A stretch of DNA of 14,296 bases from Chloroflexota bacterium (lineage in GTDB: Bacteria > Chloroflexota > Anaerolineae > UBA4142): the NCBI GenBank assembly GCA_023380675.1, contig JAMCRS010000179.1, positions 1-14,296 on the forward strand, given 5' to 3'. The position numbers were made by a program, and so were the translations under genes. Positions within the stretch are counted from its first letter, which is position 1. Each line of letters opens with the position of its first letter. Below the pieces are notes generated by a model. It had not been told where the DNA came from. It did no database searches and saw only the letters and a list, made by a program, of their open reading frames with translations. Shown one piece after another: positions 2,268 through 13,219 of this stretch.

Positions 2268-2296
2268 TTGACAGGCCGCGCTCGAGCGCCTACAAT
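2268..2296 (+). promoter_or_regulatory. Sigma70-type promoter of the small 90-aa gene
   Basis: TTGACA at 2268-2273 and TACAAT at 2291-2296 are separated by exactly 17 bp, so 11 of 12 box positions match the consensus. The predicted start of transcription is near 2303, giving a leader of about 36 nt before the ATG at 2339. Confidence 0.75.
2278..2289. promoter_or_regulatory. Candidate operator: 12-bp palindrome inside promoter spacer
   Basis: GCGCTCGAGCGC is a perfect palindrome lying wholly between the -35 and -10 boxes. A dimeric repressor bound there would block RNA polymerase. No regulator can be named. Confidence 0.4.
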
Positions 2297-2338: not shown

Positions 2339-2611
2339 ATGGCCAAGATCTTTTACCGCGAGCGGAACAGGGTAGGCGCCGGCGCCAACCAACCGCGCTT
2401 TGCCGTCGTCGGAGTGCAGGGGAGCGATATGACATTCTTTCAGTTCCATCTGCGCAGGGGGGAATTGGAAGCGATCGCTGCCGCCGTGGGCGCGGAACTG
2501 GTGCTGCTCCCGCGCGGGATGGGAGAACACGCCGGCACCCCGGGCGGCGGTGGGAAACGCAAGCCGGGTCACCGCGGGAAAACGGTCCGTCGCCGCACGT
2601 CCTCAGCCTGA
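2339..2611 (+). CDS. Small basic protein of unknown function (90 aa)
   Basis: I do not recognise a named family. The ATG follows AAAGGAG at a normal distance, and a near-consensus promoter lies 43 bp upstream, so the gene is very probably real. Residues 1-60 look folded (FYRERNRVGAGANQPRFAVV, then an ELEAIAAAVGAELVLL helix-strand). Residues 61-90 are a Gly/Lys/Arg-rich, probably disordered basic tail. There is no signal peptide, membrane segment or cysteine. It converges with the storage-protein gene and diverges from the TiaS-like gene, so it is a single-gene transcript. The N-terminal pattern resembles short conserved hypothetical proteins seen in other bacteria; that is an impression, not a search result. 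Confidence 0.7.
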   Translation: MAKIFYRERNRVGAGANQPRFAVVGVQGSDMTFFQFHLRRGELEAIAAAVGAELVLLPRGMGEHAGTPGGGGKRKPGHRGKTVRRRTSSA

Positions 2612-2647: not shown

Positions 2648-2690
2648 AGCCGGCAGCGCGGACCGATCGCTCAGCTTCTCCGCGCCGGCT
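2648..2690. terminator. Stem-loop between convergent genes, possible bidirectional terminator
   Basis: AGCCGG-CAG-CGCGGA (2648-2662) pairs with TCCGCGCCGGCT (2679-2690), giving a 12-bp stem with a 3-nt bulge and a 16-nt loop. The right arm runs into the stop codon of the storage-protein gene. A small GGGTC/GACCC hairpin (2614-2627) follows the stop of the 90-aa gene. Neither has a clear U-tract, so an intrinsic terminator is only plausible. Confidence 0.4.
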
Positions 2691-3519
2691 AGGTTGCCCG
2701 ATAGATACGCGTCCCGACGTGCTCCCCGTTCACGATCCGCGTGAGGTTGCCGGGTTCCAGTCCGTTGACGAGGAACACCTCGCGCAGACTGCGTGCGTCC
2801 CTGAGTATCTCCAACATGCTGCGCTCGACGGCGAGGTCGTTCAGGTCCAGCGCCATCAGCTCATTCACCTCGATCTCGGGAATAAACCGGGCCACCGGAT
2901 CCTTTTTGGGATCGGCCGTGTATAGTCCCTGCTCGTCTTTGATGAGGACACAACGCTGCGCGCCCATGACTTCTGCCAGTAGAAACGCTCCCGCATCCGT
3001 GCGGTGGGGCGGAATCCGTCCCTGTGCCGGCGGAGTCTCAAACAAGCCATAGGGGGGCATGGCGTGAGTGACCGGCAGTCCACCGGTCATGATGTAATTC
3101 GGAAGTTTCGACAGATCGTCGTGTCCGATCTTGACGCCTCCATGCTGGCTGAGCAGGATCGCGATCATGAGCGCGTTCTGCTCGCTGATGCTCGATCCGA
3201 GTTTCGCCAGCACGCCGGTCGGCATTCCCAGGTCGGTGCCGATGGCATAGGCGTGTCGAGCGCGGGTCCCTCCCCCCGTGGCAATGAGGAGCTTGTGCGA
3301 CTTGCGCAGCTCCACCAGCTCGTCCAGGATCGGGAGTAGCGCCTTGCGACCCCGGTCCACAATACTTTGTCCCCCGATCTTGACCACCGTCAGATCCGGC
3401 ATGAGACGGTAAACCGCCTCACCGTCGGTGCTCGCGAGAAGGGCCTTGTCCATGAGGGACTCACCCGCCAGTCGCGACTCGATGTTCAATCTTCCGCGTT
3501 CGTCACGTTTGAGGCTCAT
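2689..3519 (-). CDS. Molybdenum storage protein (MosA/MosB) homologue, amino acid kinase fold
   Basis: The 276-residue length and sequence match the alpha/beta subunits of the Azotobacter MoSto cage, a UMP-kinase-like protein that uses ATP to pack molybdate or tungstate into polyoxometalate clusters in the cytoplasm. Visible landmarks are VVKIGGQS (45-52), the nucleotide-binding ATGGGTRARH (80-89), RIPPHRTDAGAFLLAE, KDEQGLYTADPKK, and the C-terminal VNGLEPGNLTR...GEHVGT. These last motifs are characteristic of Mos proteins rather than of PyrH. The roughly 40-residue N-terminal arm is also typical. Only one subunit gene is present, so a homo-oligomer or a second gene elsewhere is implied. The ATG at 3519 is the only possible start because an in-frame TAG lies 15 nt upstream. 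Proximity to AOR and Wtp genes suggests tungstate storage, which is inference. A bona fide uridylate kinase is the less likely alternative. Confidence 0.88.
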   Translation of the reverse strand: MSLKRDERGRLNIESRLAGESLMDKALLASTDGEAVYRLMPDLTVVKIGGQSIVDRGRKALLPILDELVELRKSHKLLIATGGGTRARHAYAIGTDLGMPTGVLAKLGSSISEQNALMIAILLSQHGGVKIGHDDLSKLPNYIMTGGLPVTHAMPPYGLFETPPAQGRIPPHRTDAGAFLLAEVMGAQRCVLIKDEQGLYTADPKKDPVARFIPEIEVNELMALDLNDLAVERSMLEILRDARSLREVFLVNGLEPGNLTRIVNGEHVGTRIYRAT

Positions 3520-3553
3520 TCGTCCAGCCGGCTAACTCAGCCGGCAACCTCCT
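3520..3553 (-). promoter_or_regulatory. Ribosome binding site separated from start by a hairpin
   Basis: A perfect AGGAGG (3553-3548) lies 28 nt before the storage-protein ATG, too far to act directly. A 7-bp hairpin (GCCGGCT-GAGTT-AGCCGGC, 3545-3527) fills 19 of those nucleotides, so folding would bring AGGAGG to an effective 9 nt. No other ribosome binding site or start codon fits. Confidence 0.55.
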
Positions 3554-3570
3554 ATGCGTTGATTGCGAAA

Positions 3571-3599
3571 ATTATACCTTGTCCCAGGCCACACGTCAA
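3571..3599 (-). promoter_or_regulatory. Sigma70-type promoter of the storage-protein gene
   Basis: On the minus strand TTGACG (3599-3594), a 17-bp spacer and TATAAT (3576-3571) give 11 of 12 consensus positions. Transcription should begin near 3564, giving a 45-nt leader that contains the hairpin and AGGAGG. The promoter is 5 bp from the target duplication of the MITE-like element. Confidence 0.8.
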
Positions 3600-3604
3600 A
3601 GGCA

Positions 3605-3750
3605 GCTTGGCCGGAGAGTGTGGAGAAACAGCGCGTCACACTTGCACCCCCCAGCATGACTGTGGCGCAGTTCACCACAGCCACGGTTCCCGCTGGGGCA
3701 GGTGTGCGTGCAGTGCCAGTTACGACTTTCTCCACACTCTCGCTTGGCCG
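3605..3750. mobile_element. MITE-like non-autonomous element, 128 bp, with 15-bp TIRs and 9-bp target duplication
   Basis: The element spans 3614-3741. Its ends are perfect inverted repeats: GAGAGTGTGGAGAAA (3614-3628) and TTTCTCCACACTCTC (3727-3741). It is flanked by identical direct repeats GCTTGGCCG at 3605-3613 and 3742-3750, which fit a 9-bp target site duplication. The interior has no gene and holds smaller inverted repeats (CTGTGG/CCACAG around 3660-3680, and CCCCAGC/GCTGGGG), so it could fold into one long imperfect stem. Duplications of 8-9 bp are made by several transposase families, for example IS256 and some IS4-type groups; I cannot assign one from the ends alone. The intact duplication suggests a recent insertion. 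Confidence 0.8.
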
Positions 3751-3952
3751 TCACGCTGAAATCCGCATGCCCCGGGCGAGGCATACGCGTGTTCAGAAAC
3801 TGGATTGTCCTGCTGAGGAGCGGCGTGCGCGACGAAGCATGACAGATTCTCCCTTGCCCGTGTGCCGCTGGGTGGCATGGAACACTCGGCGTGGCATCCA
3901 CCCCGGCCCACGCGTGAGACCGGCGCGGAGGAGGATTGGCTTGCGGAGTGAT
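3751..3952. other. Non-coding stretch downstream of moaA
   Basis: No supported gene, promoter or clear terminator. It joins the moaA stop codon to the right flank of the MITE-like element and probably holds the 3' end of the moaA transcript. Confidence 0.35.
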
Positions 3953-4927
3953 TCAGCTGCCGATCTTGGACATCACCTGCCGGCGCGGCACCGCGTCCTG
4001 TGCCAGTCCGTGTCCCCACGGCTTGAGGTAGATGCTCGATCGCAGGATCGCGAGCAGGTCGTCATCGCTTGCGCCTGAGCGCAGCGGGGTCAAGAGGTCG
4101 ATCATTTCGTCGCGGAGAAGGCAGGGGCGAATCTTGCCGTCTGCGGTCAAGCGCAGACGATCGCAGCCTTGGCAGAAGGGATCGCTGACGGAACTGATAA
4201 AACCGACTGTGCCGAGAGCTCCCGCAAGTCGGTACGGGCGATACGGGGAGTGTCCGTTCCAATCCAACGGTTCGAGCGTAAGCTCCGCGGCGAGGCGCTG
4301 CTTCATTTCTTCGACCGGGACCAACGCGTCGATCTGAAAATCGGCGATCGGCCCCATCGGCATCACCTCGATGAAGCGCATGTCCCAGGGATGGTCGAGC
4401 GTGAGCCGCGCGAGGCTTGCGAGATCATTCTCGTTATGGCCGCGAACGACGACGGCATTCAGTTTGATCGGTTTCAGGCCGGCGCGTTCGGCGGCGAGGA
4501 CGCCGCGCCAAACCGAATCCAGTCGGCCGTTGCGCGTCATCTCGGCAAAGCGCTCCCCGTCGAGCGAATCGATGCTGATGTTGACGCGGTTCAAGCCGGC
4601 GCGCGCGAGCGGCTCCGCCAGGCGCTCTAGCCGCGCGCCATTGGTCGTCATCGCAATGTCTTTGATGCCGGGTGTCTTCGCAATCCGTTCGACGATCGCG
4701 GGCAGGTTCTTCCGCAGCGTGGGCTCGCCGCCGGTCAAGCGCACACGATCGATTCCAAGCGTCGCGGCGAGTTGAACGACGCGTACGAGCTCGTCGTCAG
4801 ACATGAGTTGAGCAGATGGGGCGTAATCCGCGCAGCCGTCCGGCGTGCAGTAAATGCAGCGGAAGTTGCAGCGGTCGGTCAAAGAAACGCGCAAGTAATG
4901 TATTTCACGCCCAAAGGAGTCACGCAT
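3953..4927 (-). CDS. moaA: GTP 3',8-cyclase MoaA
   Basis: Radical SAM enzyme for the first step of molybdopterin/tungstopterin synthesis, converting GTP to 3',8-cyclo-GTP in the cytoplasm; MoaC, not in this window, then makes cPMP. The first cluster motif is C20-N-F-R-C24-I-Y-C27, with GGEP at 66-69. The second cluster motif is C252-Q-G-C255 followed by DRLRLTADGKIRP-C269. The length of 324 residues is normal. The C-terminus ends MSKIGS instead of the usual di-glycine that reaches into the active site; this substitution is worth attention. The ATG overlaps the stop of the upstream MoaD-like gene by 8 bp (ATGCGTGA), indicating translational coupling; the ribosome binding site is only a purine run. 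It is the last gene of the aor operon. Confidence 0.95.
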   Translation of the reverse strand: MRDSFGREIHYLRVSLTDRCNFRCIYCTPDGCADYAPSAQLMSDDELVRVVQLAATLGIDRVRLTGGEPTLRKNLPAIVERIAKTPGIKDIAMTTNGARLERLAEPLARAGLNRVNISIDSLDGERFAEMTRNGRLDSVWRGVLAAERAGLKPIKLNAVVVRGHNENDLASLARLTLDHPWDMRFIEVMPMGPIADFQIDALVPVEEMKQRLAAELTLEPLDWNGHSPYRPYRLAGALGTVGFISSVSDPFCQGCDRLRLTADGKIRPCLLRDEMIDLLTPLRSGASDDDLLAILRSSIYLKPWGHGLAQDAVPRRQVMSKIGS

Positions 4928-5315
4928 CTTTCTCTTTCCCGTTCGATTCCTTGTACGTGTGGTGGATACCCTGGTCCTTGCTTTCCGTCATCGCCTTCGA
5001 CATCTCGCCGATCATGGCAACGCCGTGCCGGTATTGGAACGGCCACATGCTGCGGGGATGGAAAAAGGCCACGCGGTCGCCGTCGGACAGGGCGTGGCCG
5101 AGGTCGGGCTGCAGGCCCGGCATGGCGCTGAGGTCCCCATTGATGAACGTGATTCCGCGTTTTTCGCTCGGCATCTTGAGATGATTCAGCAAATCGCCGA
5201 CGGTGCTGCCGGCAGGCAAGCCGACTTGAAGATTGGCATAACTGCCCTGATCGGCTTCGCCCCCGAATCGCGCCAATTCGCCGTACAGCCACGTGTCCAC
5301 CGTAATGTCCGGCAC
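4920..5315 (-). CDS. MoaD/ThiS-fold protein with C-terminal extension and no di-glycine tail
   Basis: Residues 1-87 fit a ubiquitin-like MoaD fold (ITVDTWLYGELARFGG, LPAGSTVGDLLNHL, ITFINGD, LSDGDRVAFFHP). Where MoaD normally ends in PPxxGG the chain continues with HPRSMWPFQYRHGVAMIGEM (86-105) and a polar tail to residue 131. Without a terminal Gly-Gly it cannot carry a thiocarboxylate in the usual way, so it is unlikely to serve molybdopterin synthase. Its place between a normal MoaD and MoaA in an aor operon suggests a helper or subunit of the tungsten enzyme; that is inference. The GTG at 5315 starts one base after the MoaD stop, and its ribosome binding site is made from the MoaD GGG codons. 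It overlaps moaA by 8 bp. Confidence 0.85.
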   Translation of the reverse strand: MPDITVDTWLYGELARFGGEADQGSYANLQVGLPAGSTVGDLLNHLKMPSEKRGITFINGDLSAMPGLQPDLGHALSDGDRVAFFHPRSMWPFQYRHGVAMIGEMSKAMTESKDQGIHHTYKESNGKEKDA

Positions 5316-5316
5316 T

Positions 5317-5577
5317 CTATCCTCCTCCGATCGGCGGAAAGATTCCTATCTCGTCATCTGGCTCCAGCCGCCAGTCCTCCGGCCGGGCGCGCCCGTTGAC
5401 AAACGTAACCCTGACTTGTTCGGACGGAAGCCTGAGACGGCTCACGACGTCTTGGAGCGTGGCGCCGGCTGGCAGGTCCAGTTCGAGCCCGGCGGCGGCG
5501 TCCCCCTCCGAAACGTATCGCCGCAGGTTCGCGAATACTCTAACACGCACGTGTATTTCGGATGAATCTACGGGCAT
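5317..5577 (-). CDS. moaD: MoaD, molybdopterin synthase sulfur carrier
   Basis: This 86-residue ubiquitin-like protein ends EIGIFPPIGGG, the exposed glycine tail that is adenylated and thiocarboxylated to donate sulfur to the pterin. Family features seen are RVFANLRRYV, LPAGATLQDVV, VTFVNGR and the LEPDDEIGIFPP strand. I chose the ATG at 5577, with AGGA 9 nt upstream; a GTG at 5598 would overlap the maturase gene by 31 bp. With the ATG the overlap is 10 bp, still consistent with coupling. Its catalytic partner MoaE is not in the window. It could instead serve another sulfur-transfer route, but the locus favours cofactor synthesis. Confidence 0.9.
   Translation of the reverse strand: MPVDSSEIHVRVRVFANLRRYVSEGDAAAGLELDLPAGATLQDVVSRLRLPSEQVRVTFVNGRARPEDWRLEPDDEIGIFPPIGGG
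5320..5328 (-). promoter_or_regulatory. Ribosome binding site formed by MoaD Gly-Gly-Gly codons
   Basis: The last three sense codons of moaD are GGA GGA GGA, followed by TAG, A, and the GTG start of the next gene. The purine run acts as coding sequence for the catalytic tail and as Shine-Dalgarno sequence for the second MoaD-like protein. Confidence 0.7.
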
Positions 5578-6755
5578 CGCACGATATCCTGCGCCCACAG
5601 ACAGTCAGCGCACGAGGGATTCCAGCCCCAGCAGCCTTCATTTCGCTCGCGCAGATCGCAACTGTCCCGCAGGTCGCAGTTGGGGCACGACGGAAAATGG
5701 AACGACCGCACTTCGCCGCGAAAGCGAACATAGTCCTCGGACGTCCAGACGTCCGCCAGCGACTGCTCTCGAACGTTGCCGAGTACGTAACGGCTCACCT
5801 GCTTCTTCCGTCCGTCGATCGCAAAGTAACCATAGTTGTGGGACAGCGCGTAGCAGGGCGCGACGCCGCCGTCCCAGCCGACGACCATCGCCTTGTCCTT
5901 CACAAACCGGCAGCGCCGCTCGGCGCCCCAGTGCGTTCGCGGCAGGTCAAGCGTCCCCCACATCACCCACGCGTCGGCCTTGACCGGCCAACCCCCGGCC
6001 TTGAAGGGCGGGCGCGGCTCGTAGCCGTAGAGGACCTGGTCGCGCATGTCCTCCGTGTACGGCAAAACGTTGCTGACGAGCACGCGCGATGCGTTCAGGC
6101 GCGAGGCAAGCCCGGTCAGCTCCGCCAGCTCGGCGACGTTGCCTTGCAGGGCGACGAATTCGATCCCGAGTGCGGGGAAGAGCGAGCCGAGTTCCCTTTT
6201 CGCTTCGTTCAGGTGGCGAAGATTACCCAACACTTCGGCCAAGAGTGCGCCGCGGATGTCCGCGTACGTCTCGGGCTTGACTCCGTCGACAGAAATGACC
6301 AGGCGGTCGACGCCGAGTTCGATCAGTTCACGTGCAGTTTCGGGCTTGAGCATCAGCCCATTCGAGCCGACGGTCACGGCCAGCCCGCGCCGACGCACTG
6401 CGCGTATCATCTCCAGAATGTTCGGATGGGACAGCGGCTCGCCAAAGCCGGTGAATATGACTCGGTTCAGATCGGGTAAGCCATCCAGTGCCTCCACCAC
6501 GCGTTCGAACGTCTCCATCGCCATCTTGGCTTCGGGGTCGCCCCAGACGTTCCGAATGCACGTGCGGCAGTGGAGATTGCAGCCCGTCGTCGGCTCGATA
6601 TACAGCTTGCGCGCGTCGGGGAGGCGCGGGCGCAGAATGAGGTCGCCGTCGACGTTGTCGAGCCAGTATTCGGTGCCAGCCATCAGCCGTCGCCGCTGCA
6701 TAAAGTCGTCGGGGAACGCGAATTGGCCCCGCGCGTCACTCGTGACTAGAGGCAT
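5568..6755 (-). CDS. Radical SAM/SPASM protein, tungsten oxidoreductase maturase type, with AbrB-like N-terminus
   Basis: Residues 1-45 (VTSDARGQFAFPDDF..., GDLILRP) follow the pattern of an AbrB/MazE swapped-hairpin domain. The radical SAM core follows, with C59-N-L-H-C63-R-T-C66 and FTGFGEPLSHP at 101-111. The C-terminal part is SPASM-like, with nine cysteines (282, 301, 357, 360, 366, 375, 382, 385, 394) that could hold two auxiliary FeS clusters. Proteins of this type are encoded beside tungsten-dependent AOR genes and are thought to mature the enzyme; the reaction is unknown. The gene directly follows aor and overlaps moaD. The ATG at 6755 lacks a ribosome binding site and sits at the base of a hairpin, so its translation may be restrained. 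The family call is good; the modified substrate is inferred. Confidence 0.88.
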   Translation of the reverse strand: MPLVTSDARGQFAFPDDFMQRRRLMAGTEYWLDNVDGDLILRPRLPDARKLYIEPTTGCNLHCRTCIRNVWGDPEAKMAMETFERVVEALDGLPDLNRVIFTGFGEPLSHPNILEMIRAVRRRGLAVTVGSNGLMLKPETARELIELGVDRLVISVDGVKPETYADIRGALLAEVLGNLRHLNEAKRELGSLFPALGIEFVALQGNVAELAELTGLASRLNASRVLVSNVLPYTEDMRDQVLYGYEPRPPFKAGGWPVKADAWVMWGTLDLPRTHWGAERRCRFVKDKAMVVGWDGGVAPCYALSHNYGYFAIDGRKKQVSRYVLGNVREQSLADVWTSEDYVRFRGEVRSFHFPSCPNCDLRDSCDLRERNEGCWGWNPSCADCLWAQDIVRCP

Positions 6756-6771
6756 TTCGTGTCACACGAAA
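6755..6771 (-). promoter_or_regulatory. Hairpin at the maturase start codon
   Basis: TTTCGTG and CACGAAA are perfect 7-bp arms around a 3-nt loop. The arm on the 5' side of the gene includes the A of the ATG, and no Shine-Dalgarno sequence is visible. Folding would hide the start codon. Confidence 0.55.
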
Positions 6772-6773
6772 AC

Positions 6774-6798
6774 GGGCAGGGCGTTGGCCGCCCTGCCC
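6774..6798 (-). terminator. GC-rich hairpin downstream of aor, likely partial terminator or mRNA stabiliser
   Basis: GGGCAGGGCG and CGCCCTGCCC are perfect 10-bp arms around a 5-nt loop, starting 15 nt after the aor stop. On the minus strand it is followed by GTTTTCG, a short U-tract. Because the operon continues, it probably lowers expression of the downstream genes relative to aor. Confidence 0.65.
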
Positions 6799-6813
6799 AA
6801 CTCACTGCAATCG

Positions 6814-8574
6814 CTAGAGCTCTCCGAAGACCGAATCCAACGCACTGTCGGGCACGTCGAACACTTGATTGTGCGGCGGCAGTGGATCGAGCTTCATGAA
6901 TTCTGGGATCCGGTCGGCTGCCTTGCTGAGGCCGGCCGCTTCGTTGAACGCGCGCTCTTTCTTGAGAACGGCCGCGCCGTACTCGACCACTTGGTTGCTG
7001 GTCCAGTTGGTTCCCAGGACTCCGTTGACCTCGTCGATCATCCCTTCGAACCCGCTCGCGATGTCGAGGATCGGGAAGGCGATGAAGAGACAGTGGCCGC
7101 TGCTGTCGATGAAAGCGGTCGTCGCCTGGAACGCGCGACTCAGAGCTGCCTTGCCCTCCGGGGAGAGCGGGTCCTGCTTGCCGCTCACGCCCAGGATCTC
7201 GGGTGCGATCGTATAGCCGGCGGTGTGGTCCGCGCCCATGGTCGTGGTGGCATACGTGATGCCGATCCCCTTGACGGCGCGCGGCTCGTAAGCGGGCATG
7301 CCCTGGCCTTTGACCGCCGGTACGCGGGTCACGCCCAGCGTCTTGCCGGCCGCGCCGGTTCCGCTCCCCAGGATCCGCCCCATGGCCGTTCCTTTGCCCA
7401 TCTCGCGAATCAGGTTGATCGCGCCCTTGCCGTCGCCGAACTTGATCACCCCGGCATCCATCGCAACGGCAATGGCATCGCCGGTCTCGATCGTGTCCAG
7501 CCCGTAGGCGTTGCACAGCTTGATCATCTCGCCGATGTCGTCCAGGCTGTCGATCCCGCAGTTGGCCCCCAACGCCCAGTCCGACTCGTACTCGACACAC
7601 GACGCGATCTCTTTCCCGTCGGCCCCGTGCCAGGTGTTGGAACATTGAATGATGCAGCCGGGGCTGCAGGCATGGTTGTAGAGCTCCTTGCCCAGGCGCT
7701 GCTTGTTGCCTTCGAAGATCGCCTCGCCGGCGATCTTGGCGGCACCTTCAAAGCGACCGCTCGAGAAATTCCGCGTGGGGAGCCCGCCTGCCTCATTCAG
7801 GATGTTGATGAGCACGGCGGTGCCGTACGTGTTCAGACCACCCTTAGGCTTGGTGATGTCGTGCGTCATCATGGCCTCGGTGATCTTCTTGCGCCCCTGT
7901 TCGAACAGCCCCTTGTCGACGATCGGCACGCCGGGAGCGCCCTTGTCGTCGATCACGACGAGCTTGAGCCCCTTGCTACCCATCACCGAGCCGAGTCCCC
8001 CGCGGCCGGCGTAGCGACTGGGGCGCTTGGACTCGTCGTTGAACGCTACGCCCGAGTTGCCGTACCCTTTTTCACCGGCCACGCCGTACCCTGCGATGGA
8101 GACCTCCCCGAACTTTGCGTACACCTTCGGGAACACCTCGTGGAGGTCCTGGCCCGCATACTCGGTCGCGTCGAAGAATTCGACTTTCGGCTTGGCCGCC
8201 GCGGCGTCCCAGGTCAGCTTGACTCCCCAGGACCTGCTCTTGTCCTTCGGTTGGCCCTCGACGATCAGGGCCTTGACCTGCATGACCGCCAGGTCGCGTG
8301 CCCACGACGAACCGGCGTTCGATTCCTTGATACCGCCGGTCAATGGAGACTTGCCGCCGACCGACACACGAGCCGAAGTCGGCGCGGCAGTGCCCGTCAC
8401 GAGACCCGGACTGAACACGAGCTTGTTGTTGGGTCCCAGCGGGTGACTCAGGGGTGGTACCTCTTCTGAGACGAGGGTGGACGTCAACGCGCGCCCGCCC
8501 AGGTTCTTGTACGCGTCCGGGGCCGGGTCCACCCGGAAACTCCGGTCGCTCATGTCAATTCGAATGAACCACAT
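6814..8574 (-). CDS. aor: Aldehyde:ferredoxin oxidoreductase family protein (tungsten-pterin enzyme)
   Basis: Cytoplasmic enzyme expected to oxidise aldehydes to acids, or the reverse, with ferredoxin, using a bis-pterin tungsten (possibly molybdenum) site and one 4Fe4S cluster. The 586 residues cover all three AOR domains. The N-terminal pterin-contact segment is GGKSPLTGGIKESNAG (73-88). Cluster cysteines are C303, C307, C311 and a distant C495 (SSGHC). Other family blocks are VEYES, YGLDTIETG (357-365) and the MGADHTAG segment near 446-453. The spacing C-x3-C-x3-C differs from the C-x2-C-x3-C of the Pyrococcus enzyme and marks a subfamily. I chose the ATG at 8574, with AAAGGAG 7 nt upstream and the usual MWFIRID-like beginning; a longer frame to 8664 has no ribosome binding site. 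It heads the operon with the maturase, both MoaD proteins and MoaA. The substrate is unknown. Confidence 0.95.
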   Translation of the reverse strand: MWFIRIDMSDRSFRVDPAPDAYKNLGGRALTSTLVSEEVPPLSHPLGPNNKLVFSPGLVTGTAAPTSARVSVGGKSPLTGGIKESNAGSSWARDLAVMQVKALIVEGQPKDKSRSWGVKLTWDAAAAKPKVEFFDATEYAGQDLHEVFPKVYAKFGEVSIAGYGVAGEKGYGNSGVAFNDESKRPSRYAGRGGLGSVMGSKGLKLVVIDDKGAPGVPIVDKGLFEQGRKKITEAMMTHDITKPKGGLNTYGTAVLINILNEAGGLPTRNFSSGRFEGAAKIAGEAIFEGNKQRLGKELYNHACSPGCIIQCSNTWHGADGKEIASCVEYESDWALGANCGIDSLDDIGEMIKLCNAYGLDTIETGDAIAVAMDAGVIKFGDGKGAINLIREMGKGTAMGRILGSGTGAAGKTLGVTRVPAVKGQGMPAYEPRAVKGIGITYATTTMGADHTAGYTIAPEILGVSGKQDPLSPEGKAALSRAFQATTAFIDSSGHCLFIAFPILDIASGFEGMIDEVNGVLGTNWTSNQVVEYGAAVLKKERAFNEAAGLSKAADRIPEFMKLDPLPPHNQVFDVPDSALDSVFGEL

Positions 8575-8757
8575 ACACTTCTCCTTTCGAGAACCAGCGC
8601 TGGTTGTCGCCTTGGATCGATTTGCGGGTGTTTTTTCTCCCAGTTTGCCTCCTCGTCGAAACAAACAAGTTGCGATTCAGCCGCCTCGCGAGACAATACG
8701 ACGCCGACGAGACGCATACTCGCGTCCCGCAGGTTTGTCGCCGTCTCTAATGTCCCT
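8575..8757 (-). ncRNA. Long structured 5' leader of aor (candidate regulatory leader)
   Basis: The predicted transcript starts near 8757, leaving about 183 nt before the aor ATG. It can form an 8-bp hairpin (CGGGACGC / GCGTCTCG, 8729-8722 with 8715-8708, 6-nt loop), a GTTTG/CAAAC stem further down, and a small hairpin from the palindrome next to the ribosome binding site. The length and structure would suit a cofactor riboswitch or an attenuator. I could not match it to the known molybdenum-cofactor motif by eye. Confidence 0.4.
8592..8605. promoter_or_regulatory. 14-bp perfect palindrome beside the aor ribosome binding site
   Basis: AACCAGCGCTGGTT is perfectly symmetric and ends only a few bases before AAAGGAG on the minus strand. 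It could be a roadblock operator in DNA, or in RNA a 5-bp hairpin with a GCGC loop. Confidence 0.5.
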
Positions 8758-8763
8758 ATTGTA

Positions 8764-8793
8764 ATTATATAGACGGCCGATCCGACAAGTCAA
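8764..8793 (-). promoter_or_regulatory. Sigma70-type promoter of the aor operon
   Basis: On the minus strand TTGACT (8793-8788), an 18-bp spacer and TATAAT (8769-8764). Start of transcription is expected near 8757. Confidence 0.75.
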
Positions 8794-8825
8794 CGGTTTC
8801 CGTGAGACCGGCACTGATTTGCCTG

Positions 8826-8854
8826 TTGACAAGGACTTGAGTACGGAGTAGCAT
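8826..8854 (+). promoter_or_regulatory. Promoter of the padR-wtpABC operon
   Basis: TTGACA at 8826-8831, a 17-bp spacer, and TAGCAT at 8849-8854 (4 of 6 matches). It faces away from the aor promoter, with 32 bp between the two -35 boxes, so one bound protein could affect both. Confidence 0.6.
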
Positions 8855-8867
8855 ATGCGCTGCATAT
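8853..8867. promoter_or_regulatory. Candidate operator for the PadR-PBP regulator
   Basis: The inverted repeat ATATGC-GCT-GCATAT overlaps the end of the -10 box and the predicted transcription start of the padR-wtp operon. This is the usual place for an autorepressor. The link to the PadR protein rests on position alone. Confidence 0.5.
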
Positions 8868-8979
8868 AGAAGCTGCGTGCAGAAGACGGTTGCCGCAACC
8901 ACAAGTGCGCCTTCGGAATGCGCTCGCCCGCGCAACTCGCTGAGCAAGCACCTATTGCATGCGGACGCCAGGAGTCTCG

Positions 8980-10200
8980 ATGTCTCCTCTCCACCCGCTG
9001 CTCGGTCTCCTCTTGTCAGGGGAACGACACGGCTACGAATTGAAACGAATCGTCGACGAAGAATACGCGCCGTATTGGCACATTGACTTTGCACAGCTAT
9101 ATCGATCGCTCGCCAAAATGACCCGCCAGGGCTGGGTCGAATGGCGAGCCGAGTCGGGCGACGGCGCGCCGGACCGCAAAGTGTATTCCCTCACATCTCC
9201 GGGGCGCGCGGCCTTTCAGGCGTGGCTCGCGGAGCCGGCGCAGGACCGCGAGGAGTTTTTCGTCAAGCTGCGTCTCGCCCACGAATGCGGCGCTCCAATC
9301 GCGCCGTTGGTGCAAGATCGGCGGCGTAAGCTTGAAAAGGAGCTGGCCGGCCGTCTCGAAGCCGAGCGCGCGGCCCAGAGTTCCGACGACGCCGGGCGCC
9401 TGGCGCTCGCGAACGCCGCACTGCGTGAGACGGAGGCGATGCTGGTCGGGCTCGACCTGACTTCGGCCATCCTCTCTCCGATCGGCGGACCACGCGGCGC
9501 CGAGTCTCCCCACGACCAACTCAAGATCTTTGGCAGCGACGACCCGCTGCTCGGCTATCTCGCGCAGCTCGCGCACGCCGAATCTCACTCCATCGGAAGC
9601 GTGGGCGGGCTGCTCGCGCTCGCGCAGGGCGAAGCGGACCTGGCCGGGTCCCATCTCCTGGACGTGGAAACCGGGGAGTACAATGTTCCATTCGTCCGGC
9701 GTCTCGTGCCGGAGGACGAAATGGTGTTGGTCAATCTCGCCTTCCGCGAGAACGGGTTGATGATGGCGCCGGGCAATCCCAAAAAGATTCGCACCCTCCG
9801 CGATCTCTTGCGCCCTGACGTCCGCTTTATCAACCGCCAGGCCGGAGCCGGCACCCGTCTCCTACTTCACGTCCGGCTGCGTCAGGCCCGGCTCAATCCA
9901 CACGGGCTGCGAGACTGGGACCGCACCGTCGCCACGCACCAAGCCGTCGCGGACGCAATCAACGTCGGCGCGGCCGACGTCGGTCCAGGCGTGCGGGCGG
10001 TCGCAAGCGCGCACGGTCTCGAGTTCCTTCCTCTCGGACTGGAGCGTTTCGATCTGGTCATTCCAAATGACAAATTCGAGTCGCGCCGGGTCCGGCCGAT
10101 CCTGGACGCCCTCGACAGCCCCGAATTCCGACGCGCAGCTTCGACGCTCATCGGCTACGATCTCTCACGCAGCGGCAAAGTCGTCGCGCGCATCAGATAA
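8980..10200 (+). CDS. PadR-type transcriptional regulator fused to a PBP_like ligand-binding domain
   Basis: Residues 1-85 are a PadR winged helix (HPLLGLLLSGERHGYELKR, then LYRSLAKMTRQGWVEWR and the KVYSLTSPGRAAF wing). Residues 86-165 are a helical, coiled-coil-like PadR dimerisation region. Residues 180-395 are a periplasmic-binding-protein-like domain of the PBP_like type: GSHLLDVETGEYNVPFVRRL (223-242), MMAPGNPKKIR, FINRQAGAGTR (283-293), GAADVGPGVRA and ERFDLVIP. This domain usually senses a small ligand. Since it heads the wtpABC operon and faces aor, tungstate, molybdate or a pterin is the likely signal; that is inference. The protein is 406 residues and has no signal peptide, so it acts in the cytoplasm. 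The ATG at 8980 has CAGGAG 5 nt upstream and gives a normal PadR N-terminus; an ATG at 8959 lacks a site. The following gene begins 21 bp later. Confidence 0.9.
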   Translation: MSPLHPLLGLLLSGERHGYELKRIVDEEYAPYWHIDFAQLYRSLAKMTRQGWVEWRAESGDGAPDRKVYSLTSPGRAAFQAWLAEPAQDREEFFVKLRLAHECGAPIAPLVQDRRRKLEKELAGRLEAERAAQSSDDAGRLALANAALRETEAMLVGLDLTSAILSPIGGPRGAESPHDQLKIFGSDDPLLGYLAQLAHAESHSIGSVGGLLALAQGEADLAGSHLLDVETGEYNVPFVRRLVPEDEMVLVNLAFRENGLMMAPGNPKKIRTLRDLLRPDVRFINRQAGAGTRLLLHVRLRQARLNPHGLRDWDRTVATHQAVADAINVGAADVGPGVRAVASAHGLEFLPLGLERFDLVIPNDKFESRRVRPILDALDSPEFRRAASTLIGYDLSRSGKVVARIR

Positions 10201-10221
10201 CACAACGTAGAGGAGATAAGC

Positions 10222-11319
10222 ATGAAAGAACATATAGTGATCCTCGCCACCGCGCTCATGGCGGTTGGCTACAGCGCATGTGCGCCTGCCCCCGCACCGG
10301 CCGCCAGCCCCGTACCTCAGGCGCCCACGCTTGCACCGCAGGCGCCCACCGCGAAACCCCAGCCAACCACCGCTGCATCTGAGCCAACCACCGCCGCATC
10401 TCAGCCCACAACCACGTCGGCCGCAGCCCCCCAGGTCACGCTGACTATATTTGGCGCTGGCACGCTCGCCAATCCCTTCAAGCAGATGGACGACGCATTT
10501 TCTATAAAGTACCCCAACGTCACGATCCAGCCGCAATTCGGCGGAAGCGTCAAGATGGTCAAGCAGGTGACGGACCTGCACCAGATCGCCGACGTGGTCG
10601 CCGTTGCCGACTATAACGTGATTCCGCAGTATCTGTTCGGAGCCAATGGAACGACGGCCTACACCAAATGGTACGCCGGTTTTGCGACGAACGCCATCAC
10701 ATTCGTCTATACGGACAAGAGCAAGTACGCGAGCGAGATCACGCCGCAGAATTGGTATCAGGTGCTCGCGCGTTCAGGCGTGCAGATCGGCCGCTCGAAC
10801 CCGGACACCGATCCGTCAGGCTACCAGACGGTCCAGATGCTGAACCTGGCGGAGACCTATTACAAGCAGCCCGGCCTCGAGGACGCCATCCTGGCGAACG
10901 CCCCGAAAACGAATATGCGGGACACCGAGACGGAGCTGATCGCCGCGCTCCAATCCGGCCAGATCGACTATCTCGCCATTTATCTCTCCGACGCGCGGCA
11001 GCATAATTTCAAGTATCTGGATCTGCCGCCTCAGATCGATCTGAGCGATGCCAAGTACGCCGCCGACTACGCCAAGGCCTCGGTGACGACGGTGAACGGC
11101 ACCCTCAAGGGATCGCCCATCGTCTACGCGGTCACGATACCGAATAACGCCGCTCAGCCTGACTGGGCGACCAAGTACGTGCAGTTTCTCCTGGGCCCGG
11201 ACGGCCAGGCCGCGATCAAGACTAATGGGTTTGGCAGCGTCGCCCCGGCGTACGTGAACGACGTGAATCAGCCTCCCGCCGATCTCAAGAGCCTAATTAC
11301 GGCGTGGCCCAGCCAATAG
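10222..11319 (+). CDS. wtpA: Tungstate/molybdate ABC transporter substrate-binding lipoprotein (WtpA type)
   Basis: Captures oxyanion outside the membrane and delivers it to WtpBC. A hydrophobic signal ends at C20 (GYSAC; Tyr at -3 makes a weak lipobox) and is followed by a Pro/Thr/Ala-rich linker (21-70) with PTTAAS repeats that tethers the protein. The binding domain has the WtpA pattern: FGAGTLANPFKQMDDAF (77-93), YPNVTIQPQFGGSVKMVKQV, ADVVAVADYNVIP (123-135), VYTDKSKYASEITPQNWY and RSNPDTDPSGYQ (191-202), in which an Asp should contact the metal. Archaeal WtpA binds tungstate and molybdate with very high affinity through extra carboxylates. GAGGAGA precedes the ATG, and the end overlaps wtpB by 16 bp. 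Strong match to WtpA over bacterial ModA or TupA; metal preference is unproven. Confidence 0.92.
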   Translation: MKEHIVILATALMAVGYSACAPAPAPAASPVPQAPTLAPQAPTAKPQPTTAASEPTTAASQPTTTSAAAPQVTLTIFGAGTLANPFKQMDDAFSIKYPNVTIQPQFGGSVKMVKQVTDLHQIADVVAVADYNVIPQYLFGANGTTAYTKWYAGFATNAITFVYTDKSKYASEITPQNWYQVLARSGVQIGRSNPDTDPSGYQTVQMLNLAETYYKQPGLEDAILANAPKTNMRDTETELIAALQSGQIDYLAIYLSDARQHNFKYLDLPPQIDLSDAKYAADYAKASVTTVNGTLKGSPIVYAVTIPNNAAQPDWATKYVQFLLGPDGQAAIKTNGFGSVAPAYVNDVNQPPADLKSLITAWPSQ

Positions 11320-12176
11320 CTACCGGTCAAGACGCGGCTTCAGTCGGCCGCGCGGCGTCGCGGGGCAAGTCGAGATCGCTTGCCCCGTCGCGCCGCCTGA
11401 TCGTCGGGTTCTGGTTTGCCGGCGGTCTGTTGCTGGCGTTCATTCTCCTCCCTCTGCTGCAGCTCTACGTCACCCAGACGCCGGCGAGCTTGGGACACGT
11501 CGCCGCGATGGACGACGTGCGGGCCGCCATCGGCCTGAGCCTCGTCGCCGCGTTCCTGACCGCGGCGATCGCCGGGATCTTCGGCGTTCCACTCGCCTAC
11601 CTCCTCGCGCGCACCGCGTTCGGCTTCAAGTCGGTCGTCGAAGTGATCGTCGACCTGCCGTTGGCAGTGCCGCACACGGTCGCCGGCATCGCGCTCCTGT
11701 TCGTTTTCGGACGCACCGGCGTCATCGGCGCGCCGGTGGAGGCGCTGACTGGAATGCAGTTCTGGGGCAGCTTGGGGGGCATCGTCATCGCGATGCTCTT
11801 CGTCAGCGCGCCGTACACCGTAAACGCCGCACGCGTGGGCTTTGAGTCTGTCGATCCCCGACTGGAGAAGGTGGCCCGCACGCTCGGCGCCGGCCCGTGG
11901 ACCGTGTTCACGCGCGTCACCCTACCGCTCGCCCGACGCGGCATTCTGACCGGCCTAACGCTCACCTACGCGCGCTCGATCAGCGAGTTCGGCGCGGTCA
12001 TCATCCTGACGTACTACCCCATGACCGCGCCGGTCAAGATCTACGACCTCTTCCTCCAGTTCGGCCTGGGGGACTCGTCGGCGATGGCGGCGCTTTATCT
12101 CACCGTCGCCCTCTCCCTCTTCATCCTCTTTCGTTACCTGGCGTACGGCCGGGTCGTGCCGGGGGGACACGCGTGA
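11304..12176 (+). CDS. wtpB: Tungstate/molybdate ABC transporter permease (WtpB/ModB type)
   Basis: Inner-membrane channel subunit of 290 residues with about six hydrophobic segments (near 32-54, 75-102, 114-136, 152-175, 214-236 and 258-279). The cytoplasmic EAA loop that docks the ATPase is EKVARTLGAGPWTVFTRVTLPLARRG (188-213, shown in part by its EKVARTLGAG start). DLPLAVPHTVAGIALL (117-132) is typical of molybdate/tungstate permeases. The N-terminal 31 residues are polar and Arg/Ser-rich. The GTG at 11304 overlaps wtpA by 16 bp and has a poor ribosome binding site, so translation is probably coupled. The stop overlaps the GTG of wtpC by 4 bp. Confidence 0.92.
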   Translation: MAQPIATGQDAASVGRAASRGKSRSLAPSRRLIVGFWFAGGLLLAFILLPLLQLYVTQTPASLGHVAAMDDVRAAIGLSLVAAFLTAAIAGIFGVPLAYLLARTAFGFKSVVEVIVDLPLAVPHTVAGIALLFVFGRTGVIGAPVEALTGMQFWGSLGGIVIAMLFVSAPYTVNAARVGFESVDPRLEKVARTLGAGPWTVFTRVTLPLARRGILTGLTLTYARSISEFGAVIILTYYPMTAPVKIYDLFLQFGLGDSSAMAALYLTVALSLFILFRYLAYGRVVPGGHA

Positions 12177-13219
12177 CCGCCGTCATCGTCGAGCACGTCT
12201 CGGCCGAGCTAGGCAAATTCGCGCTCCGAGACATTTCGTTCGCGCTCGAGCAGGATGAGACGTTCGTCATCCTCGGCCCCAGCGGTGCCGGCAAGTCCGT
12301 CCTACTGGAGACGATCGCCGGCTTTAACCGGACCGACGCGGGCCGAATCGCGATCGACGGGCGCGACGTGACCGCGGCGCCCCCGGAGGCGCGCCGCGTC
12401 GGTTTGATGTTCCAGGACTATGCGCTCTTTCCTCACCTCACCGTCGCCCAGAACGTGGGGTTCGCCTGCGGCGACGACCGGACGCGCGTGCGTGAGCTGC
12501 TCGCCCGTCTCGGCCTAGAGCGGCTCGCCGAGCGCAAACCGCAGAATCTGAGCGGAGGCGAAAAACAGCGCGTGGCGCTCGCACGCGCGCTGGCGATGAA
12601 CCCCGCACTGTTCCTGTTCGACGAGCCGCTTTCCGCTTTGGACGCGCGTGCCCGCGACACCCTGCGCGAAGAGCTGAAAACCCTCCTGCGCCAGTTGGCC
12701 ATCCCCGCGGTCTACGTGACGCATGACCAGACCGAAGCCCTGGTGCTGGCAGACAAGATCGGCGTGCTGCGCGACGGGGCTTTGCTGCAGGTGGGCACGC
12801 CGGCAGAGGTCTTTAACACGCCGGCGGACGAGTTCGTCGCGAATTTCGTCGGCGTCGAGACGGTCCTCGAAGGGCGCGTGGTTTCCGCATCCGACGGCGA
12901 CGTCCGGATCGCACTCGGCGAGCGCGAGATTCATGCCGTCGGCGAACATCTCTCGCCGCGAGTCCTGGTGTGCATTCGACCCGAAGACGTCGCGCTGGCT
13001 CGCGCCGTGCACGCCGACTCGAGCGTCAAGAACCAGTTCGACGCCCGCGTGACCGCGATCGCTTCCTTGGGCCCGCTGTTCAAGATCACGCTCGATTGCG
13101 GGTTCCCCCTCGTGGCCTATGTCACCAAGCAATCCTATCTCGACCTCGGCCTCGCTCCCGGCGTTCGCGTGGTCGCCGGCGTCAAGGCGACCGCGATCCA
13201 TTTGATCCCCAAAGGCTGA
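12173..13219 (+). CDS. wtpC: Tungstate/molybdate ABC transporter ATP-binding protein (WtpC/ModC type)
   Basis: Cytoplasmic ATPase of 348 residues that powers WtpB. Walker A is GPSGAGKS (35-42), the Q-loop is FQDYALFPH (80-88), the signature is LSGGEKQR (126-133), Walker B is LFLFDE (146-151), the D-loop follows at SALD (154-157), and the switch histidine is H184 (VTHDQTEA). The C-terminal region from about residue 235, with a CIRPEDVALA strand and a FKITLDCGFPLVAYVT segment, fits an oxyanion-sensing TOBE regulatory domain, which in relatives lets bound molybdate or tungstate shut off transport. The GTG start at 12173 overlaps the wtpB stop (GTGA), with a G-rich run (GGGGGGAC) just upstream. 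The frame stays open further 5' but that part lies within wtpB. End of the operon. Confidence 0.93.
   Translation: MTAVIVEHVSAELGKFALRDISFALEQDETFVILGPSGAGKSVLLETIAGFNRTDAGRIAIDGRDVTAAPPEARRVGLMFQDYALFPHLTVAQNVGFACGDDRTRVRELLARLGLERLAERKPQNLSGGEKQRVALARALAMNPALFLFDEPLSALDARARDTLREELKTLLRQLAIPAVYVTHDQTEALVLADKIGVLRDGALLQVGTPAEVFNTPADEFVANFVGVETVLEGRVVSASDGDVRIALGEREIHAVGEHLSPRVLVCIRPEDVALARAVHADSSVKNQFDARVTAIASLGPLFKITLDCGFPLVAYVTKQSYLDLGLAPGVRVVAGVKATAIHLIPKG

What the first reader, a model, noticed from the sequence alone, without database searches (positions are those of the whole stretch)
2689..13219. A self-contained tungsten/molybdenum island joining sensing, import, storage, cofactor synthesis and enzyme
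Side by side are a PadR-PBP regulator, the WtpABC importer, a MoSto-type storage protein, MoaA and MoaD, a radical SAM maturase, a tail-less MoaD-like protein and AOR. AOR, maturase and MoaD-like genes are known to cluster, but combining them with a metal-storage cage and a new kind of one-component sensor looks unusual. Selection of tungsten over molybdenum is inferred from the AOR and WtpA families.
Basis: partly seen in the sequence, partly recalled or inferred. Interest (0 to 1): 0.8.

Follow-up and report, generated by a model that had tools for sequence, protein, structure and literature searches.

The report
Tungsten island with mapped switch
A stretch of DNA from an uncultured Chloroflexota-type bacterium groups genes that appear to sense, import, store and use the rare metal tungsten, and comparing relatives shows the DNA switch its sensor probably binds and a recurring storage gene set around it.

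Summary
In detail: PadR-PBP, WtpABC, a MoSto-like protein, MoaA, a GG-tailed MoaD, a tail-less MoaD-like protein, a TIGR04317 maturase and an AOR are present at the stated places. AOR, maturase, both MoaDs, PadR-PBP, MoSto and a tungstate transporter (TupABC instead of WtpABC) recur together in L016. But AOR lies near MoSto in only 2 of 25 single-gene MoSto loci, so the island is a rare junction of two conserved modules.

Module 1: TupA/TupB lie 3' of PadR-PBP in 14 of 17 loci with an intact PadR part. A palindrome, ACTATATGCANTGCATATAGT, lies 5' of 17 of 18 intact genes (window 8850-8870), mostly over the -10 box. The same site precedes AOR in three relatives. I infer a tungstate sensor that represses its own operon and probably activates AOR.

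HTH-PBP tungstate regulators (TaoR/TupR) are known, so the sensor is a new variant, not a new kind. Metal identity, sensing, storage and direction of regulation are inferred.

The parts
1446..2144 (-). TiaS-TCKD-like protein (stand-alone kinase-type domain plus ~80 aa), partner of single-gene MoSto; start at MIYIGLDDTDN
   Evidence: Pfam TiaS_TCKD 24.1 bits, below its cut-off of 27; AF2 model pLDDT 91.5 matches TiaS structures over ~152 columns, E 7e-9; beside MoSto in 14 of 25 loci
2268..2296 (+). promoter-like site of the small protein gene (TTGACA-17-TACAAT)
   Evidence: consensus scan, 11 of 12 positions
2339..2611 (+). undescribed ~90-aa protein (MAKIFYRERN...), core of about 60 aa and basic tail
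   Evidence: 160 homologues at E up to 1e-3, none of the 120 listed with a Pfam domain; beside MoSto in 15 of 25 loci; low-confidence model
2689..3519 (-). single-gene MoSto-like storage protein (amino acid kinase fold)
   Evidence: 2ogx_B 2.4e-81, 2ogx_A 8.8e-56; own promoter-like site 3599-3571
3953..4927 (-). MoaA, GTP 3',8-cyclase; C-terminus IGS instead of IGG
   Evidence: TIGR02666 355 bits; tail compared with 7 relatives
4920..5315 (-). tail-less MoaD-like protein
   Evidence: ThiS 25.3 bits; 66-71% identity in L003, L016, L027
5317..5598 (-). MoaD with GGG terminus
   Evidence: ThiS 37.5 bits
5568..6755 (-). tungsten oxidoreductase radical SAM maturase
   Evidence: TIGR04317 425.8 bits, cut-off 380
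6814..8574 (-). AOR (aldehyde ferredoxin oxidoreductase family), cluster motif CSPGCIIQC
   Evidence: AFOR_N/C; 9mqx and 1aor as best solved relatives; motif
8764..8793 (-). AOR promoter-like site TTGACT-18-TATAAT
8826..8854 (+). PadR-PBP-wtpABC promoter-like site TTGACA-17-TAGCAT
8850..8870 (.). PadR-PBP operator AGCATATGCGCTGCATATAGA, overlapping the -10 box of the + promoter
   Evidence: only hit of 8 bits or more in the window, 21.7 bits, left out of matrix training
8980..10200 (+). PadR-PBP regulator (PadR winged helix + PF12727 PBP-like domain)
10222..11319 (+). WtpA, tungstate/molybdate binding protein
   Evidence: TIGR03730 273.9, cut-off 242.75; PDB 3k6u 7.6e-71
11304..12176 (+). WtpB permease
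   Evidence: NF040839 264.1 bits, below cut-off 340
12173..13219 (+). WtpC ATPase with C-terminal TOBE domain
   Evidence: NF040840 355.9 bits, below cut-off 440; TOBE

Best explanation
This is a tungsten island in which two separately conserved Chloroflexota modules have met. Module 1 is a tungstate-sensing regulon. PadR-PBP (PadR winged helix fused to a cytosolic tungstate/molybdate-binding PBP-like domain) binds the palindrome ACTATATGCANTGCATATAGT. At its own promoter the palindrome covers the -10 box, so the oxyanion-loaded protein most likely shuts off itself and the tungstate importer behind it (TupABC in most relatives, WtpABC here). At the AOR promoters of two close relatives the same palindrome ends on the -35 box (centre about -44), an activator-like position, so the same loaded protein probably switches on AOR, the maturase and the two MoaD-like genes: import off and enzyme on when tungsten suffices. 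Module 2 is a storage module: a homomeric MoSto-like ATP-dependent store with a TiaS-kinase-like protein and an undescribed small basic protein, in other genomes with a DUF134 protein and a palindrome of its own. In the window DUF134 is missing and MoSto probably has its own promoter. Shown by computation: gene families, recurrence, both palindromes and their placement. Inferred: ligand, direction of regulation, which protein binds which palindrome, metal stored, homomeric assembly, roles of the TiaS-like and small proteins.
For: TupA and TupB 3' of PadR-PBP in 14 of 17 loci with an intact PadR part, immediately so in 12. Operator: 16 of 18 PadR-PBP upstream regions tested (window included, L012 not) have a site with 4 or fewer mismatches of 20, against 0 of 2000 shuffled 700-mers; the L018 site overlaps its annotated start; so 17 of 18 intact genes, and the truncated L012 gene too. 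Held-out sites: window, L012, and 5' of AOR in L003 and L016. In 20 loci with the PBP-like domain but no PadR part the best match has 7-9 mismatches. Over 10 whole genomes 15 sites in all, reversed-pattern control 0; 10 at PadR-PBP, 3 at AOR, 1 before a Mo-hydroxylase, 1 unassigned. The palindrome forms a -10 box behind TTGACA/TTGACT in 18 of 20 sites tested, no shuffled control made. Storage module: of 25 single-gene MoSto loci, DUF134 in 17, small protein in 15, TiaS-like in 14 within 3 kb; TupA and TupB in 8, WtpA/B-like in 3, MoaA in 6 within 10 kb. MoSto and TiaS-like co-occur in 18 genomes (23 and 27 of 396; 1.6 expected; Fisher 2e-20; relatedness not corrected, and the TiaS-like query alignment was made mostly from copies beside MoSto). 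Second palindrome 5' of the small gene in 14 of 14 loci with small gene and DUF134 (5 or fewer mismatches of 22; 0 of 300 shuffled 4-kb pieces).
Against: No biochemistry. MoSto and AOR are rarely neighbours (2 of 25). MoSto and PadR-PBP co-occur in 2 of 396 genomes (1.0 expected, p 0.26), MoSto with above-cut-off TIGR04317 in 5 of 23 (2.5 expected, p 0.09), PadR-PBP with above-cut-off TIGR04317 in 3 of 17 (1.8 expected, p 0.28). In the window the operator lies about 100 bp 5' of the predicted AOR start site, not at -44. L005 has no operator. Cluster-ligand positions of MoSto alpha (recalled) are not conserved, so storage of a polyoxometalate is uncertain. 6 of 25 MoSto loci have none of the three module genes. 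Wtp is said to carry molybdate too.
Confidence: 0.6

Rival explanations
1. Same circuit, but the physiological metal is molybdate or either metal: PadR-PBP is a general Mo/W sensor like ModE, and WtpABC plus MoSto serve Mo enzymes as well as AOR.
For: In the window the importer is WtpABC, said to carry both oxyanions (passage in PMC11980592); one operator-like site in G599 (2 mismatches) lies before a xanthine-dehydrogenase-type Mo enzyme; the closest solved storage relative is the Mo store MoSto.
Against: 14 of 17 intact PadR-PBP genes have tungstate-type TupA/TupB beside them; 3 of the 15 genome-wide sites precede AOR, a family regarded as tungsten enzymes.
Confidence: 0.25
2. MoSto is in the island by chance juxtaposition; it serves general oxyanion homeostasis and has no functional tie to AOR.
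For: No PadR-PBP operator at MoSto; separate promoter-like site; AOR near MoSto in 2 of 25 loci; MoSto and PadR-PBP genomes overlap no more than chance.
Against: TupA/B, WtpA/B-like, MoaA, AOR or PadR-PBP lies within 10 kb of MoSto in 13 of 25 loci; MoSto genomes carry the broad TIGR04317 family more often (15 of 23, 6.5 expected, p 2e-4, relatedness not corrected); MoSto, PadR-PBP and the small protein fall on contigs of equal length in five further cases besides the window, two of them L016 and L002 (inferred from lengths only).
Confidence: 0.3
3. The MoSto-like protein is a nucleotide kinase (UMP/uridine kinase type), not a storage cage.
For: Amino acid kinase fold; archaeal UMP kinase model matches at 3e-18, below its cut-off; some database names say uridine kinase; alpha-type cluster ligands absent.
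Against: MoSto chains match far better (2.4e-81 against 1.9e-14 for UMP kinases); own conserved H133, D134, H152, E161, H172; Mo/W neighbours.
Confidence: 0.1
4. PadR-PBP acts the other way round: the apo form binds and represses AOR and importer together, and oxyanion releases it (simple induction).
For: Ligand release from operators is common among PadR proteins (recalled).
Against: Site geometry differs between own promoter (on -10) and AOR (beside -35, L003, L016); inducing an importer by its own sufficient substrate would be wasteful.
Confidence: 0.25

Closest known systems
TaoR / TupR (HTH-PBP regulators of tungstoenzymes and Mo/W transport, Desulfovibrio; Rajeev et al. 2019, known here only through passages of PMC10102598 and PMC11980592)
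   Same: DNA-binding domain joined to a PBP-like domain, controlling AOR or tupABC
   Different: PadR winged helix instead of the HTH_17 type named for TaoR-like proteins, no TOBE domain found, Chloroflexota; operator described here
ModE molybdate regulator (recalled)
   Same: proposed logic: loaded form represses import and activates enzyme or cofactor genes
   Different: TOBE ligand domain and different DNA-binding domain
Azotobacter vinelandii MoSto (MosA/MosB)
   Same: amino acid kinase fold, conserved ATP-site motifs, 277 bits to MosB
   Different: one gene instead of two; alpha cluster-ligand positions replaced; own conserved His/Asp/Glu set; no nitrogenase gene among the window genes I scanned
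Tub, tungstate storage protein of Eubacterium limosum
   Same: proposed cytosolic tungsten store in a tungsten-enzyme bacterium
   Different: small TOBE hexamer, unrelated fold
Pyrococcus-type AOR with maturase (TIGR04317 / cmo, recalled)
   Same: AOR, radical SAM maturase and MoaD-like genes together
   Different: AOR with C-x3-C-x3-C; joined to sensor, importer and storage
TiaS (archaeal tRNA-Ile2 agmatidine synthetase)
   Same: TCKD kinase domain fold and DDTD/GTG motifs
   Different: match covers only about the first 150 residues; far below the TiaS cut-off; in bacteria beside MoSto, and in several loci followed by an ECF-type transporter

Membership tests
MoSto (molybdenum storage protein) | sequence of the MosA/MosB family over the whole length | tested here: met
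   2ogx_B residues 7-267, E 2.4e-81
MoSto (molybdenum storage protein) | two different subunits encoded side by side | tested here: not met
   one gene in the window and one match in each of 23 positive genomes; two genes in G043, G150, G166 only, of 8 positive genomes
MoSto (molybdenum storage protein) | cluster ligands of the alpha chain (E129, H140, H156; recalled) | tested here: not met
   aligned residues G132, Y142, G158 in the window protein
MoSto (molybdenum storage protein) | ATP-dependent Mo/W storage | not testable with these tools
   needs purified protein and ICP-MS
W_rSAM_matur (TIGR04317) | score over the curated cut-off 380 | tested here: met
   425.8 bits
AOR/WOR family | AFOR_N and AFOR_C domains | tested here: met
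   171.1 and 252.9 bits
AOR/WOR family | C-x2-C-x3-C cluster motif | tested here: not met
   CSPGCIIQC, C-x3-C-x3-C, also in L003, L016, L053 (CHPGCIIKC in L046); CxxCxxxC in L001, L007, L186; neither in the distant L047 protein
WtpABC | WtpA over the TIGR03730 cut-off | tested here: met
   273.9 against 242.75; the second WtpA model, NF003196, 296 against 355, is not reached
WtpABC | WtpB and WtpC over NF040839 / NF040840 cut-offs | tested here: not met
   264 against 340; 356 against 440
TaoR/TupR-type regulators | PBP-like ligand domain behind a DNA-binding domain | tested here: met
   PF12727 221.9 bits, PF03551 51.2 bits
TaoR/TupR-type regulators | HTH_17-type DNA-binding domain (as named for TaoR-like proteins) | tested here: not met
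   PadR domain instead
TaoR/TupR-type regulators | control of tungstate transport or AOR | tested here: inconclusive
   operator sites at these genes; no binding or expression data
TiaS | full-length TiaS with tRNA-binding domains | tested here: not met
   29.6 bits against 600; 232 aa; structural match limited to about 152 columns

The most novel reading that the evidence does not exclude
An unreported two-switch tungstate economy of Chloroflexota: PadR-PBP (a tungstate one-component switch with a defined operator) trades import against AOR synthesis, while a second DUF134-governed module stores tungsten in a homomeric MoSto cage that is loaded or emptied with help of a TiaS-derived ATPase and a small basic protein; this would be the first MoSto devoted to tungsten enzymes rather than nitrogenase.
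Probability: 0.3. Interest if true: 0.8.

Novelty: new variant of a known kind. Interest (0 to 1): 0.62.

Why it matters
It gives a concrete, testable operator and regulon for a probable tungstate regulator in a large, mostly uncultured phylum, links a MoSto-type protein to tungsten import genes and to named new partners, and offers a natural candidate tungstate switch. A 2019 paper states that A. vinelandii MoSto has no known homologues (PMC6448029, passage seen); here 7469 proteins match with E up to 1e-3 among the 7998 scored (distant kinases may be among them), the best 120 at 79% identity or more.

Tried and rejected
A riboswitch or other Rfam element controlling the island: no Rfam match up to E 1. 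Co-regulation of MoSto by PadR-PBP: no site of 12 bits or more beside MoSto, the small gene or the TiaS-like gene in the 174 loci scanned. DUF134 palindrome in the window: absent (best 9 mismatches of 22); no DUF134 ORF seen between the small gene and MoSto. The idea that MoSto is tied to AOR across the class: only weakly supported. The idea that the TiaS-like protein occurs only with MoSto: rejected, 9 of 27 positive genomes lack MoSto and some copies in MoSto genomes lie elsewhere. Literature: searches for PadR with tungstate (15 of 54 papers listed), PadR/molybdate/tungsten/operator (12 of 44 listed), TaoR with tungsten (2 papers), molybdenum storage protein with Chloroflexi (0) and DUF134 with molybdenum (0) showed no paper on these links; only the held open-access library was searched. 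The small-protein model is of low confidence (pLDDT 68.6) and was not searched against folds.

Limits of the counts: Fisher tests ignore relatedness. Several loci are the same place fetched twice (L151-L167 repeat places among L001-L018; L057-L076 repeat L077-L096; L002 and L077 overlap), so of the 42 operator hits I count 24 distinct sites: 19 at PadR-PBP, 2 at AOR, 1 between WtpA and PadR-PBP, 2 unassigned. The L018 site was in the matrix training set; the window, L012 and AOR sites were not. L012 is a truncated gene: the palindrome stands directly before about residue 79, most of the PadR part is missing; it is left out of the 17. In one search, 13 of 396 genomes matched PadR-PBP over most of its length (G518, the truncated case, among them); four more (G458, G608, G571, G534) matched only by the PBP part there but hold the PadR part, so I count 17. 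The other listed rows match only the PBP part: of these the 13 loci L168-L180 lack a PadR match, 20 with shorter frames were fetched and lack it too, the rest were not looked at (mostly frames of about 640-750 aa, taken as MoeA-PBP fusions), and the list was cut. The scan used two peptide patterns and misses relatives; loci L019-L026 lack the PadR part or are cut and are not counted.
Full report
CHECK. Corrections: the AOR most likely starts at 8574, PadR-PBP at 8980, and two further genes belong to the neighbourhood: a TiaS-kinase-like gene at 1446-2144(-) and a ~90-aa gene at 2339-2611(+). No whole genome is held for the window. Its PadR-PBP relatives are named Anaerolineae or Chloroflexi where an organism is given.

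MODULE 1, THE SENSOR. 1343 proteins match PadR-PBP and the 120 listed carry both domains; one source already auto-names it 'molybdate-binding protein/DNA-binding PadR family transcriptional regulator'. A scan of the species genomes gave 26 loci; 17 keep the PadR part (L001-L011, L013-L018), L012 has lost most of it. In these 17, TupA and TupB lie 3' on the same strand in 14: immediately next in 12, and behind WtpA/WtpB-like genes in L002 and L007. L004 has a divergent WtpABC, L009 ends at the contig edge, and L013 (a Deltaproteobacteria-titled MAG) has the TiaS-like gene and ABC-type ATPases there. TupC was not seen in L006. L016 TupA matches NF041772 with 198 bits, below its cut-off of 400. 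Four loci carry an AOR on the same stretch: L003 and L016 with the close AOR (79%), maturase and both MoaDs contiguous, L001 and L007 with distant AORs (35% and 29%).

THE OPERATOR. Upstream regions share a palindrome. In 16 of 18 tested PadR-PBP upstream regions (window included) the best match to ACTATATGCANTGCATATAGT has 4 or fewer mismatches of 20, against 0 of 2000 shuffled 700-base pieces; the L018 site overlaps its annotated start; L005 has none. That is 17 of 18 intact genes. A matrix trained without the window, L012 or any AOR site finds one site of 8 bits or more in the window (8850-8870, 21.7 bits), the L012 site, and sites 132 and 136 bp 5' of AOR in L003 and L016; 42 hits of 12 bits or more in 1.30 Mb against a mean of 2.0 in five shuffles, repeated loci among them. 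As a control, 20 loci whose PBP-like domain has no PadR part have no site (best 7-9 mismatches); their heads look GntR-like, ArsR-like or MoeA-like by eye. Over ten whole genomes with PadR-PBP, the core pattern with up to two mismatches occurs 15 times in 9 genomes, the reversed control 0 times: 10 at PadR-PBP, 3 at AOR (G001, G002, G003), 1 before a xanthine-dehydrogenase-type gene in G599 and 1 near wtpC in G004. In 18 of 20 PadR-PBP sites tested, a TTGACA or TTGACT stands 16-18 bases before a -10 box made by the palindrome's left half; at the L003 and L016 AOR promoters the palindrome instead ends on the -35 box (no shuffled control for this geometry). In the window the + promoter follows the rule (TTGACA-17-TAGCAT), and the AOR promoter TTGACT-18-TATAAT lies further off. 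Hence the proposed logic: repression of own operon and importer, activation of AOR. Direction and ligand are inferred.

MODULE 2, STORAGE. MoSto matches MosB at 2.4e-81 and MosA at 8.8e-56. In 400 genomes drawn from the phylum of L016's genome, 8 have MoSto: 5 with one gene, 3 with two. In 396 genomes of its class 23 have it, each with one match. Taking the 23 plus two phylum-only genomes (25 loci), within 3 kb lie DUF134 in 17, the small protein in 15, the TiaS-like gene in 14, at least one of them in 19; within 10 kb TupA and TupB in 8, WtpA- and WtpB-like genes in 3, MoaA in 6, AOR in 2 (several loci are cut by contig ends). The three two-gene loci show none of the three partners. The TiaS-like gene occurs in 27 of the same 396 genomes, 18 shared with MoSto (1.6 expected); its query alignment was made mostly from copies beside MoSto, so the search leans that way. 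Its model (pLDDT 91.5) matches TiaS over 152 columns but it is far below the TiaS cut-off. In several loci it is followed by an ECF-type transporter. A second palindrome, GTTTTGGGCATATGCCCAAAAC, stands 5' of the small gene in 14 of 14 loci with small gene and DUF134 (5 or fewer mismatches of 22; best of 300 shuffled 4-kb pieces 6), with a one-base-longer form 5' of tupB in L049 and L094. The window and L016 lack both DUF134 and this site. Across 26 single-gene sequences the ATP-site motifs are kept, the alpha-chain cluster ligands (recalled) are not, and H133, D134, H152, E161 and H172 are conserved in 96-100% (chain numbering).

CO-OCCURRENCE in the 396 genomes. TIGR04317: 43 over cut-off, 112 at E up to 1e-75. 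With MoSto: 5 of 23 over cut-off (2.5 expected, p 0.09) and 15 of 23 broad (6.5 expected, p 2e-4). PadR-PBP: 17 genomes (13, four more, one of the 17 truncated); with MoSto 2 (1.0 expected, p 0.26), both at one locus (L016; L002); with TIGR04317 over cut-off 3 (1.8 expected, p 0.28), broad 10 (4.8 expected, p 0.007). So sensor and enzyme maturase tend to go together; storage and sensor meet in few lineages. Equal contig lengths (76393, 44190, 18317, 5938, 4801) suggest five contigs besides the window with sensor, small protein and MoSto; two of these are L016 and L002.

AGAINST WHAT IS KNOWN. PMC11980592 (abstract and passages) describes Tub as a tungstate store and TaoR-like HTH-PBP(-TOBE) regulators. 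PMC10102598 (passages) names tupR of D. vulgaris, citing Rajeev et al. 2019, which I did not read. PMC13328260 (passages) classifies 92 WOR clades; in its main text 'storage' gives 2 hits, both on Tub (one in the reference list), and 'radical SAM', 'MoaD' and 'Chloroflex' give none. PMC6448029 (passages) gives MoSto background: it also accumulates W. The island is thus a new variant of known kinds, with a newly mapped operator and a newly described storage neighbourhood.

Noticed in passing
window 3953-3958: MoaA ends IGS (codon AGC) while 7 of 7 relatives compared end IGG; the GG tail matters for MoaA activity (recalled). Real variant or sequencing error not resolved.
   Followed up: partly
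window 6814-8574, residues 303-311: AOR cluster motif C-x3-C-x3-C (CSPGCIIQC), shared with L003, L016 and L053 (CHPGCIIKC in L046), against CxxCxxxC in L001, L007 and L186.
   Followed up: partly
L086, L087, L088, L090, L013: TiaS-like gene followed by ECF-type transporter genes (double ATPase, CbiQ and a PF09819-type membrane protein by Pfam in L087, PF09819 also in L090; the other loci by eye), substrate unknown.
   Followed up: partly
L049 5036-5056; L094 11748-11768: One-base-longer form of the DUF134-associated palindrome 78-80 bp 5' of tupB, hinting that the storage regulator also controls import there.
   Followed up: no
L190 1501-1517 and 1766-3016 (G599): PadR-PBP-type site (2 mismatches) before a xanthine-dehydrogenase-type Mo-hydroxylase.
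   Followed up: partly
L186 1501-1517 (G003): PadR-PBP operator 5' of a distant AOR (36%) on another contig of a PadR-PBP genome.
   Followed up: partly
L004 3664-3684: Strong operator-like site (23.6 bits) past the end of wtpC with only small uncertain ORFs beside it.
   Followed up: no
L012 1152-1290: PadR-PBP gene that lost most of its PadR part while promoter and palindrome stand directly before the remainder: decay, or an assembly gap.
   Followed up: partly
L196-L215: The same PBP-like domain follows GntR-like heads (for example L196, L198, L206), ArsR-like heads (L207, L209) and what looks like a PIN-type head (L208, L211), all read by eye: a wider set of candidate Mo/W regulators.
   Followed up: no
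window 2-856 and about 13424-14296: Island edges: HlyD/CusB-type membrane fusion protein on the left and an MFS-type transporter start on the right (read by eye), apparently unrelated.
   Followed up: no
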